DNA of 64,000 bases from Dehalococcoides mccartyi (GTDB lineage: Bacteria; Chloroflexota; Dehalococcoidia; GIF9; DYGU01): positions 62,001 through 126,000 of the forward strand of contig DYGU01000001.1 in NCBI GenBank assembly GCA_020724525.1, written 5' to 3'. The position numbers and the translations under genes were made by a program. The notes beneath the pieces were generated by a model. That model did no database searches. It was not told where the DNA came from and saw nothing but the letters and a program-made list of their open reading frames with translations. Of this stretch, positions 15,018 to 18,113 are shown one piece after another; positions within the stretch are counted from its first letter, which is position 1; each line of letters opens with the position of its first letter.

Positions 15018-15476
15018 TTAGCTTAGGCTATTGAGCGCCACAAGGTAAGAGAGTCTTCTGCCAAGTGGCCTAATTAAACTTTTTTCATCTGCTGTTATAA
15101 AGCTCCAGCCAAGGTGCTCTGCCAATTGAAGATAAACGGCATCATAGAAAGTGCACAAATATCTATTTGCTAAGCGAAAGGCTTCTTCTAAAACGGCCGG
15201 CCTTTCCTCTATTAGGGGTAGTGGCAACTGCTGGAAGCGCCGAATGGCTTCCAAGGCATTAAGCTCGTTTATCCGGCCTTTTATGACAGCTCTTCTGATA
15301 GCTGCAGGGACCTCATAAAGTGCCAGGCGTGGAGCTACAATAGCCACTTCCCCCTCTGCAAACCGTTGAAAAAGTGTATCAGCCTTGTCCGTCCAGGGTT
15401 CGTCACGCAAATAGAGTTTAGTTATGACATTCGAATCCACTACAAAAGGGCCGTTCTTACTCTTCTGATCCATCAC
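15018..15476 (-). CDS. PIN-domain (VapC-like) ribonuclease toxin
   Basis: FVVDSNVITKLYLRDEPWTDKADTLF...ALYEVPAAIRRAV...YLCTFYDAVYLQLAEHLGWSFITADEKSL. Confidence 0.85.
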   Translation of the reverse strand: MMDQKSKNGPFVVDSNVITKLYLRDEPWTDKADTLFQRFAEGEVAIVAPRLALYEVPAAIRRAVIKGRINELNALEAIRRFQQLPLPLIEERPAVLEEAFRLANRYLCTFYDAVYLQLAEHLGWSFITADEKSLIRPLGRRLSYLVALNSLS

Positions 15477-15804
15477 GAAGCTGCCGGATTAAAACCTGTG
15501 TCGTAAGAGGTCTAATATCAAGCTTTGCACGAATTTCATGTGCTGATTTAATTGCTTCTCGGCGAGCAGCGAGCTCATCAGCGCTTGGTTTAGGTAGATG
15601 ACCAGCCCTTAAATCTTCAAAACTTACCTCCGGGTGACCGGCCCATCTAACTAGCCAGCTATCGGCTGCTAAAGGTAACTCTATTGTGGCAATCTCAAAT
15701 TGAACCCTACCTTGGTTATCTTCAAACCGCCCATATAGAGGTATATATACTCCCATGCGATTTTCTACCATCTCAGTAAGTGCCGGTGAAGTGACAAACA
15801 TCAT
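15457..15804 (-). CDS. Small hypothetical protein, putative antitoxin for the adjacent PIN toxin
   Basis: Overlaps PIN ORF by 20 nt and upstream ORF by 4 nt; family not recognised. Confidence 0.6.
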   Translation of the reverse strand: MMFVTSPALTEMVENRMGVYIPLYGRFEDNQGRVQFEIATIELPLAADSWLVRWAGHPEVSFEDLRAGHLPKPSADELAARREAIKSAHEIRAKLDIRPLTTQVLIRQLRDGSEE

Positions 15805-16475
15805 CTGAGCACCTCCACTATAATAGCTTCCACCTTTTGGCTGGTTCCTATAGCAAAGTCATAGGCTCGTTTTACGAAATCTCGAATGTCTTTCTCAGAA
15901 TAATCAAGTCCTTCTGTTCTTAGGTAATAATCAATATCTAAAAAGGTTGAAACTTGAGGTAGTTCAGATGGCGGCGAAAATAGGAGGCTTTGAAGCGAAA
16001 CCAGTTCCGCAGGGCGGAATGAAATGTTTACTCCACACCCTTCATGTTCTGACCTAAGGGAAAGCCCAACATCAACCGAGCTTTGGACCAAAGCGTTCTC
16101 TTTAAACAAGCGATCCTTATACCTCAAAACAAGCTCTTCAAAACTAATGTTTGCAGGCTTTATCCAAAAGCTTCTTGCTCCCAACCGAATTAAAGGTGGC
16201 AGAGGGATAAGCTCGTTTATCCTACGGAAAACTTGCATCACAATATCAATACAATAGCCCGGATTTGGCACATATTCCATATCTACAACACTTCTTTCTG
16301 GGTCCACTATCAGCCGCATTTTCTTTTCCTTTACACCCAGCCCAAATCCAGGTATGATTACTGGTGCCCTCTCCACTTCCTCTCCTGTAAGTGTAGCATA
16401 AAGTTGATCATAGACTGTGAATAACCTATGTAAACCTTTATACCGTAACTCCACAAAGAATTTTATGATCTCCAC
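15801..16475 (-). CDS. Hypothetical protein, possibly TIGR04255-like
   Basis: 224 aa uninterrupted ORF at the head of the overlapping operon; family resemblance is weak. Confidence 0.6.
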   Translation of the reverse strand: MEIIKFFVELRYKGLHRLFTVYDQLYATLTGEEVERAPVIIPGFGLGVKEKKMRLIVDPERSVVDMEYVPNPGYCIDIVMQVFRRINELIPLPPLIRLGARSFWIKPANISFEELVLRYKDRLFKENALVQSSVDVGLSLRSEHEGCGVNISFRPAELVSLQSLLFSPPSELPQVSTFLDIDYYLRTEGLDYSEKDIRDFVKRAYDFAIGTSQKVEAIIVEVLR

Positions 16476-16653: not shown

Positions 16654-17090
16654 TTAAGAGTGTTTCATTAACCATCTGTTCTCACCAATTATTTGGCACT
16701 CGTATCTCAGTTTGCTAAGCGAGACAAGCTCTTTGATTTTAGACTTTAGCCCCTCCAGCTTTTCTATATCAAACTCCGGTTTCTGAGTACTTGGGTTAAG
16801 GCACTGTTCGCGAGCCGTATAGATTCTCCTTAGTTCTTCCACTTCCCTAAACCAGTACACTCTATCGATTTCGGGGATCTCATTTCCGATGAAGAAGTCA
16901 ACAACCCTGTCCTCAACACCGTGATTAGTCAGTTGTGTTACGAAGAACTTTCTTAGCGAATGCGCACTTAGAATGCCATATTTGCCACTTCCGTTGAAGC
17001 CTACTTAGTTGCCACAGTTTGAAGCATTTTATTGAATTTTTGGTGGCTTAATGCCTTCGTTCCTCTCTTTGTTCTGAGAATAAGAACAGC
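16654..17090 (-). pseudogene. Tyrosine recombinase C-terminal remnant
   Basis: Across frames: LRTKRGTKALSHQKFNKMLQTVATK + VGFNGSGKYGILSAHSLRKFFVTQLTNHGVEDRVVDFFIGNEIPEIDRVYWFREVEELRRIY; HSLRKFF and the RVYW tyrosine are recombinase motifs. Confidence 0.75.
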
Positions 17091-17590
17091 TTGCACAATC
17101 TGCTCAGCAGGTCTATCCGCCTTCCAGTCACGGGTCATGTTGTCCCAGGTAATCACTGAGTAGCCTAAGTTTTGAGCAGTCCGCATTAGCCAAGGTGTAC
17201 GAAAGCCATAAGGAGGGCGAAAGAGCTTTACCTCAAACCCGGTATACTCGTAAATTGTCTGGCGGGTCAACTCAAGCTCCTGAGCAATTGTCTTGCCTAA
17301 CCTCAGGCATAGTGACTTGCGGTGATAGTAGGAATGATTTCCCAATAGATGTCCTTCAGCCATTATGCGTAGACAGACTTCAGGATAGTGACGAACATTT
17401 TGTCCAATCAGAAAGAAGGTGGCTTTTACTCCATATTGTCCTAATATATTGAGAACCTGGGAAGTATATGGTTCGTTCGGTCCATCATCAAAGGTTAACG
17501 CTATTTGATGGTGGTCGCGTTTACCATTAGACCACACCTTATCATAGAGCTACGAGCGGGGGTTCACACCATGGAAAGTGAGGAAAGCAC
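17085..17590 (-). pseudogene. NodB-type polysaccharide deacetylase, interrupted at both ends
   Basis: QIALTFDDGPNEPYTSQVLNILGQYGVKATFFLIG...GHLLGNHSYYHR...FRPPYG; in-frame TAG between NPRS and LYDKVW (17550-17552); C-terminus replaced by recombinase sequence. Confidence 0.8.
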
Positions 17591-18113
17591 CTAAGGTGGT
17601 AGTTACAGCAGCATAAAGCCACCTTATTAGAAAATTGAAGACTTTGCGAAAAAGCTGGTCCAGAATGATGTTGATGAAATTACCTATATAAGAGGTAATC
17701 TTAGCAATTCTGCCAGCGTCGAAGTAAGCATAAGGTCCGCTTACCACCACAGTCTCTGGCTCCCGGACAAAGCGCGACACAATAGCTGAAAGCCAACAAG
17801 TTGGCGCCTGGGTATCGGCATCGATAAAGGCAATAATCTCCCCTGTGGCTGCTTCGGCACCCTTTTGCCGAGCACAGGCAGGACTTCTCTTATTTTCGTA
17901 GACAAGCTTAGCCCCCCAGCTTAGAGCTACCCTTGCCGTTTTGTCCTCGCTGGCATTATCAGCCGCAATGACCTCATACTCTCCAGGGTAGTCCTGCCTT
18001 CTTATCGATTGTAAACAAAGGGGTAGATATTCTTCCTCATTGTAAGCCGGTATGACTACAGAGACAGAGGGAAGCTCTTTAGAATTAACCATTTGTGCTC
18101 GCATTACCTCCAT
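17550..18113 (-). pseudogene. GT2-family glycosyltransferase, C-terminally truncated
   Basis: PSVSVVIPAYNEEEYLPLCLQSIRRQDYPGEYEVIAADNASEDKT...IAFIDADTQAP; the C-terminal third looks replaced by the deacetylase N-terminal membrane segment. Confidence 0.75.

What the first reader, a model, noticed from the sequence alone, without database searches (positions are those of the whole stretch)
15018..16475. Overlapping three-gene operon ending in a PIN toxin, with two unrecognised partners
Gene 1 (224 aa) and gene 2 (115 aa) overlap by 4 nt; gene 2 and the PIN gene overlap by 20 nt. Gene 2 is not an obvious VapB (AbrB/RHH/Phd) antitoxin, and gene 1 is not a usual VapBC component. All three frames are intact despite nearby decay. 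Best candidate here for an undescribed tripartite TA or defence module.
Basis: partly seen in the sequence, partly recalled or inferred. Interest (0 to 1): 0.6.

Follow-up and report, generated by a model that had tools for sequence, protein, structure and literature searches.

The report
Three-part toxin-antitoxin operon with TBP-like hub
Three overlapping genes encode an RNA-cutting PIN toxin, an antitoxin with a familiar toxin-binding tail on an unfamiliar front half, and a third protein with a TBP-like fold that heads similar three-gene operons with interchangeable toxins in other bacteria, which points to an undescribed kind of three-part toxin-antitoxin system.

Summary
In detail: three intact overlapping minus-strand genes (224, 115 and 152 aa) of a Dehalococcoidia-related Chloroflexota genome. 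Gene 3 is a PIN RNase (Pfam 2.4e-10) with all four catalytic acids. Gene 2 is not wholly unknown. Its residues 72-113 match the toxin-binding tails of antitoxins that sit beside the closest PIN relatives (29.8 bits; best of 200 shuffles 8.9). Elsewhere the same tail is fused to HTH or AbrB/MazE-like domains. Gene 2 residues 1-70 are an orphan. Gene 1 relatives occur in 12 genomes. Of 11 readable loci, 7 are gene 1 / small gene / PIN; the others pair with a retropepsin, a 'TQSCD' protein or a membrane protein. AlphaFold gives gene 1 a duplicated beta-alpha-beta3-alpha (TBP/AdoMetDC-like) fold. The TIGR04255 family gives the same fold, and it heads the same kind of operon with HEPN, TQSCD, zeta and other partners. 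Best reading: a VapBC core under a third component that acts on the antitoxin, working like toxin-antitoxin-chaperone (TAC) modules but not homologous to them. The core and the recurring trio are well supported. The role of gene 1 and any phage-defence function are inferred. I found no paper describing this family.

The parts
15801..16475 (-). gene 1: 224-aa protein, distant relative of TIGR04255, predicted duplicated TBP/AdoMetDC-like (beta-alpha-beta3-alpha)x2 fold; proposed third component
   Evidence: no Pfam/NCBIfam/PADLOC/PHROG match; relatives in 11 other genomes; AF2 pLDDT 87, pTM 0.82; Foldseek TBP prob 0.99
15457..15804 (-). gene 2: 115-aa antitoxin; residues 72-113 a VapB-type toxin-binding tail, residues 1-70 an orphan segment
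   Evidence: tail 29.8/26.3 bits to antitoxins L026/L027, shuffled maximum 8.9; orphan N-terminus
15018..15476 (-). gene 3: 152-aa VapC-like PIN RNase toxin with four conserved acidic residues
   Evidence: Pfam PIN 2.4e-10; PDB PIN structures 2fe1 1.5e-6, 1v8o 5.8e-4; acids conserved in alignment
16657..16995 (-). remnant of the C-terminal end of a tyrosine recombinase upstream of the operon, possibly from the element that brought it
   Evidence: Phage_integr_3 4.2e-4 and Phage_integrase 8e-3, both below Pfam cut-off; no full-length frame

Best explanation
The operon is a three-component toxin-antitoxin module. Gene 3 is a PIN-domain RNase toxin (VapC type). Gene 2 is its antitoxin: its C-terminal tail covers the PIN active site. 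Where ordinary VapB proteins carry a DNA-binding domain, gene 2 has a different N-terminal segment. Gene 1, a TBP-like-fold protein related to TIGR04255, is a dedicated third component that most likely binds that N-terminal segment and keeps the antitoxin stable or competent. If gene 1 is lost, titrated or bound by an invader's product, the antitoxin fails and the PIN RNase is released to stop growth. Shown: the trio, PIN identity, antitoxin tail, recurrence of the trio, exchange of toxin partners, predicted fold. Inferred: binding of gene 1 to gene 2, the order of events, and the trigger.
For: PIN family and catalytic acids. The closest PIN relatives lie directly downstream of 64-aa proteins whose tail matches gene 2 residues 72-113 (29.8 and 26.3 bits; best of 200 shuffles 8.9), and the same tail is fused to an HTH_17 domain (L028) or an AbrB/MazE-like domain (L029) in other antitoxins. 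Gene 1 relatives in 12 genomes keep a mostly tightly packed order gene 1 / small protein / effector; 7 of 11 readable loci end in a PIN gene, one in a retropepsin preceded by a DUF5678 protein, one in a TQSCD protein. The gene 1 and TIGR04255 models share the duplicated fold, score each other above length-matched background (p 3e-4 and 7e-5), and share a partner family (TQSCD). In 40 surveyed TIGR04255 loci, most are followed within a few nt by a variable middle gene and then TQSCD, HEPN or zeta-type genes. One constant component with variable antitoxin/toxin pairs is how TAC modules are built (PMC5105189).
Against: No experiment and no modelled complex shows gene 1 touching gene 2. The N-terminal 70 residues of gene 2 have no detectable relatives, so a shared gene-1-binding segment across middle proteins cannot be shown. 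TBP-like folds often bind nucleic acid, which suits other roles. In the TAC modules tested, the chaperone-dependence segment is at the antitoxin's C-terminus; here it would be N-terminal. Two gene-1 loci (L015, L058) have only a membrane-protein partner. The rank tests use related sequences, so their p-values are optimistic.
Confidence: 0.5

Rival explanations
1. Gene 1 is the operon's own transcription regulator. Since gene 2 lost its DNA-binding domain, the TBP-like gene 1 binds the promoter and gives autoregulation; genes 2 and 3 work as an ordinary VapBC pair.
For: Gene 2 lacks any recognised DNA-binding domain; gene 1 is the first gene and has a TBP-like fold.
Against: In several TIGR04255 operons the middle protein seems by eye to keep an HTH-like segment although the hub is present (PDB searches gave no significant support), so the hub is not simply a substitute. 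No clear operator-like palindrome lies upstream of gene 1.
Confidence: 0.2
2. Gene 1 is a nucleic-acid-binding sensor or targeting subunit that brings the PIN RNase to a particular RNA or RNA-DNA hybrid, as the TBP-like domain does for RNase HIII and as proposed for RNase LS/RnlA-type proteins.
For: TBP-like domains bind RNA-DNA hybrids in RNase HIII and are fused to HEPN RNases of the RNase LS family (PMC3710099). The gene 1/TIGR04255 hub recurs with RNase-type effectors (PIN, HEPN).
Against: Partners also include a retropepsin and a zeta-type kinase, which do not act on nucleic acid. The overall TM-scores to TBP are low (0.3-0.4), so DNA- or RNA-binding geometry is not established.
Confidence: 0.15
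3. An ordinary VapBC pair that happens to lie behind an unrelated gene.
For: Closest PIN relatives work in two-gene units without gene 1 (L026, L027).
Against: The same order recurs in seven distant genomes, mostly with 4-nt overlaps or near-zero gaps, and gene 1 relatives head similar operons with other toxins.
Confidence: 0.1

Closest known systems
VapBC type II toxin-antitoxin systems
   Same: PIN RNase toxin, adjacent upstream antitoxin with a C-terminal toxin-covering tail, overlapping genes
   Different: antitoxin N-terminus is not a recognised DNA-binding domain; a recurring third gene precedes it
Toxin-antitoxin-chaperone (TAC) modules, including CmdTAC (PMC5105189, PMC11618068)
   Same: one constant component grafted onto different toxin-antitoxin families; antitoxin carries an extra variable segment
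   Different: third component is not SecB-like (no SecB match by sequence or fold); gene order puts it first; extra segment is N-terminal
TIGR04255 family (NCBIfam, function unknown)
   Same: similar length, same predicted duplicated fold, same operon layout, shared TQSCD partner
   Different: gene 1 is below detection by the TIGR04255 model and about 20-30 aa shorter
TBP / AdoMetDC fold; TBP-like domains of RNase HIII and RNase LS family
   Same: duplicated beta-alpha-beta-sheet-alpha topology
   Different: about 10% identity, low full-length TM-score, no evidence of DNA or RNA binding

Membership tests
VapBC (type II TA) | PIN-domain toxin with four conserved acidic residues | tested here: met
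   Pfam PIN 2.4e-10; acids in the alignment
VapBC (type II TA) | antitoxin C-terminal tail that binds the toxin | tested here: met
   gene 2 residues 72-113 homologous to tails of solo antitoxins of related PINs; binding itself not shown
VapBC (type II TA) | antitoxin N-terminal DNA-binding domain (AbrB, RHH, HTH, Phd) | tested here: not met
   no Pfam/NCBIfam match; orphan N-terminus
VapBC (type II TA) | toxin is growth-inhibiting RNase neutralised by antitoxin | not testable with these tools
   needs expression assay
TAC (toxin-antitoxin-chaperone) | SecB-like chaperone as third component | tested here: not met
   no Pfam SecB match; no SecB among the top 50 fold matches
TAC (toxin-antitoxin-chaperone) | antitoxin depends on the third component for stability | not testable with these tools
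   needs co-expression assay
TIGR04255 | scores above the NCBIfam cut-off (30 bits) | tested here: not met
   no match for gene 1 or three of its relatives; own genome has no match
TIGR04255 | same fold and distant profile similarity | tested here: met
   same predicted topology and same PDB neighbours; rank tests p 3e-4 and 7e-5; hhalign weak, 7-29% probability
TIGR04255 | shared operon organisation and partner family | tested here: met
   gene 1 relative L014 and TIGR04255 L020 share a TQSCD partner (E 1.6e-35); survey
Known anti-phage defence systems (PADLOC) | match to a listed component | tested here: not met
   genes 1-3 without match

The most novel reading that the evidence does not exclude
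Gene 1 and TIGR04255 proteins form one superfamily of TBP-fold hub proteins of an undescribed polymorphic three-component toxin-antitoxin or abortive-infection system, in which the hub senses an invader or stress and controls interchangeable antitoxin/toxin pairs (PIN, HEPN, zeta, retropepsin, TQSCD).
Probability: 0.4. Interest if true: 0.78.

Novelty: new variant of a known kind. Interest (0 to 1): 0.62.

Why it matters
TIGR04255 proteins are annotated as unknown, although in this survey they turn up in 36 of 400 (9%) of the Chloroflexota-phylum genomes searched and on cyanobacterial, Thermus and Vibrio plasmids. If they and gene 1 are hubs of a polymorphic three-part toxin system, that gives a large orphan family a testable function, adds a non-SecB kind of third component to toxin-antitoxin biology, and points to new toxin families, such as the TQSCD protein.

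Tried and rejected
Direct searches with gene 2 found only itself, and its N-terminal 70 residues gave only chance-level matches in 323 genomes. Gene 1 has no relatives in plasmids, phages or viral contigs. An alignment of all gene 1 relatives was too diverse to seed a collection scan. The SecB/TAC-homolog idea was rejected on sequence and fold. Plain TIGR04255 membership was rejected because no tested member of the gene 1 family reaches the model's cut-off. Promoter and terminator scans gave no more than chance, no strong operator palindrome was found, and no tRNA gene lies nearby. A readable gene2-PIN fusion was prepared but not modelled, because the last structure job went to TIGR04255. HTH-like segments in some middle proteins of TIGR04255 operons were seen by eye; PDB sequence searches did not support them significantly. 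Paper searches for TIGR04255, DUF5678 and combined operon terms found nothing describing the system.

Full report
Observation. They lie between ruvX-like and polysaccharide-deacetylase genes. Directly upstream is a broken tyrosine-recombinase end (16657-16995; Pfam matches below cut-off), so the operon may have arrived with a mobile element. The window is in the same order as two named Dehalococcoidia MAGs: contig lengths of L061 and L062 equal those of genomes G028 and G011.

Gene 3. It matches Pfam PIN at 2.4e-10 and solved PIN structures from Pyrobaculum (2fe1, 1.5e-6; 1v8o, 5.8e-4), and it keeps the four acidic positions of PIN nucleases. That it is an RNase toxin follows from the family and is not shown here.

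Gene 2. No library matches it. But the closest PIN relatives in the class (L026, L027; 38-41% identity) are each preceded by a 64-aa protein in antitoxin position whose C-terminal tail aligns with gene 2 residues 72-113 at 29.8 and 26.3 bits. The best of 200 shuffled copies of gene 2 reached 8.9 bits. In L028 the same tail follows a helix-turn-helix domain (HTH_17, 2.1e-14) and in L029 an AbrB/MazE-like domain (9.7e-5, just below cut-off). [quoted passage not shown] So genes 2 and 3 are a VapBC pair in which the usual DNA-binding half of the antitoxin has been replaced by a 70-residue segment. That segment has no relatives in 323 genomes of the class beyond chance-level matches.

Gene 1 and recurrence of the trio. 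A search of 60 relatives found three remote gene 1 homologs. Profiles then found more: in all, 12 genomes of the phylum carry one, so it is sparse, as mobile systems are. In seven (the window, L005/L061, L006/L062, L011, L012, L013/L060, L057) the second gene downstream is a PIN gene, with a small protein between. L012 is a looser case (184-nt gap and a possibly degraded middle gene), and the gene 1 of L013 is shortened. One locus (L059) is cut off by the contig end after the middle gene. One (L004) has a DUF5678-containing middle protein and a retropepsin-like protease. One (L014) has a 'TQSCD' protein. Two (L015, L058) have only a membrane protein. The middle proteins of the long-PIN trios share a conserved C-terminal block and a variable N-terminal part, the same two-part layout as gene 2.

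What gene 1 is. AlphaFold2 on 11 natural relatives gives pLDDT 87 and pTM 0.82, with two repeats of beta-alpha-beta-beta-beta-alpha. Foldseek's best solved matches are TATA-binding proteins (probability 0.99, E 3.6e-4) and then S-adenosylmethionine decarboxylase, another protein of that fold class. Full-length TM-scores are only 0.3-0.4, so this is a statement about topology, not about DNA binding. The TIGR04255 family is of similar size. A model of one member (pLDDT 79, pTM 0.78) has the same duplicated topology and also finds AdoMetDC and TBP. HMM cross-scores rank each family above length-matched background (p 3e-4 and 7e-5; related sequences, so optimistic), while hhalign is weak (7% local, 29% global). 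Gene 1 is therefore a probable distant relative of TIGR04255, not a member by the model's own cut-off.

TIGR04255 operons. Of 40 TIGR04255 loci, including two plasmid records, most start a tightly packed operon: a variable middle gene, then a TQSCD-family protein (15 loci by HMM or motif), a HEPN-like protein (7), or a recurring pair of unknown proteins (about 8). Some of these loci seeded the HMMs, so their self-matches are by construction. The HEPN-like protein matches PADLOC HEPN_IX at 4.3e-6. A Vibrio record has TIGR04255 / hypothetical / zeta toxin, as annotated. The TQSCD proteins of a gene 1 relative (L014) and of a TIGR04255 locus (L020) are homologous (1.6e-35), which ties the two hub families together. 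Several of these loci sit beside restriction-modification genes: type IIG next to L061, a type I restriction subunit next to L020, type IIG and a PLD/Snf2-like helicase next to L066. This is circumstantial evidence for a defence role.

Mechanism. The simplest reading is a toxin, an antitoxin that neutralises it through its tail, and a constant hub that acts on the antitoxin's extra segment. That is the logic of TAC modules, where a SecB-like chaperone and a variable antitoxin extension have been grafted onto several toxin families (PMC5105189) and where in CmdTAC a phage capsid protein titrates the chaperone and frees the toxin (PMC11618068). Gene 1 is not SecB-like, so this is analogy, not membership. 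The regulator rival and the nucleic-acid-targeting rival (TBP-like domains bind RNA-DNA hybrids in RNase HIII and are fused to HEPN in the RNase LS family; PMC3710099) remain open. A chance neighbourhood is unlikely given the recurrence.

Novelty. No paper in the library names TIGR04255, and the combined searches found no description of this operon type. Each part is of a known kind; the combination, with a TBP-fold hub and interchangeable partners, appears undescribed. The library is incomplete, so a description elsewhere cannot be excluded.

Noticed in passing
window 16657-16995 (-): Remnant of a tyrosine recombinase C-terminus just upstream of the operon; no full-length frame, sub-threshold Pfam matches.
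   Followed up: partly
L014:2332-2940, L020:1631-2164, L088, L090, L096 and others: Family of about 180-280 aa with a TQSCD-like motif, recurrent third gene of TIGR04255 operons; no Pfam family and no solved relative; weak PHROG 4575 match. Possibly an unrecognised toxin.
   Followed up: partly
L021:2220-3120, L077, L083, L086, L087, L098, L100: Recurring pair after TIGR04255: a protein with an NWD.YGA-like motif and a protein with an ILYRR-like motif in most copies; function unknown.
   Followed up: no
L004:444-1393: DUF5678-containing protein paired with a retropepsin-like protease (PADLOC candidate PDC-M52B match 2e-4) behind a gene 1 relative; looks like a protease-type toxin-antitoxin pair.
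   Followed up: partly
L016, L022, L080, L084, L085, L091, L095: TIGR04255 followed by a protein ending in a D(x)WW motif in most copies and a HEPN-like protein.
   Followed up: partly
gene 1 model m024c6925ec9a (window 15801-16475): Best viral structural match is A0A515MGR4 (202 aa, TM 0.56-0.61, E 1.7e-7), unnamed; a viral protein with the same fold could be a counter-player or relative.
   Followed up: no
window 17001-18113: Polysaccharide deacetylase and family-2 glycosyltransferase frames next to the operon look shortened, consistent with local decay.
   Followed up: no
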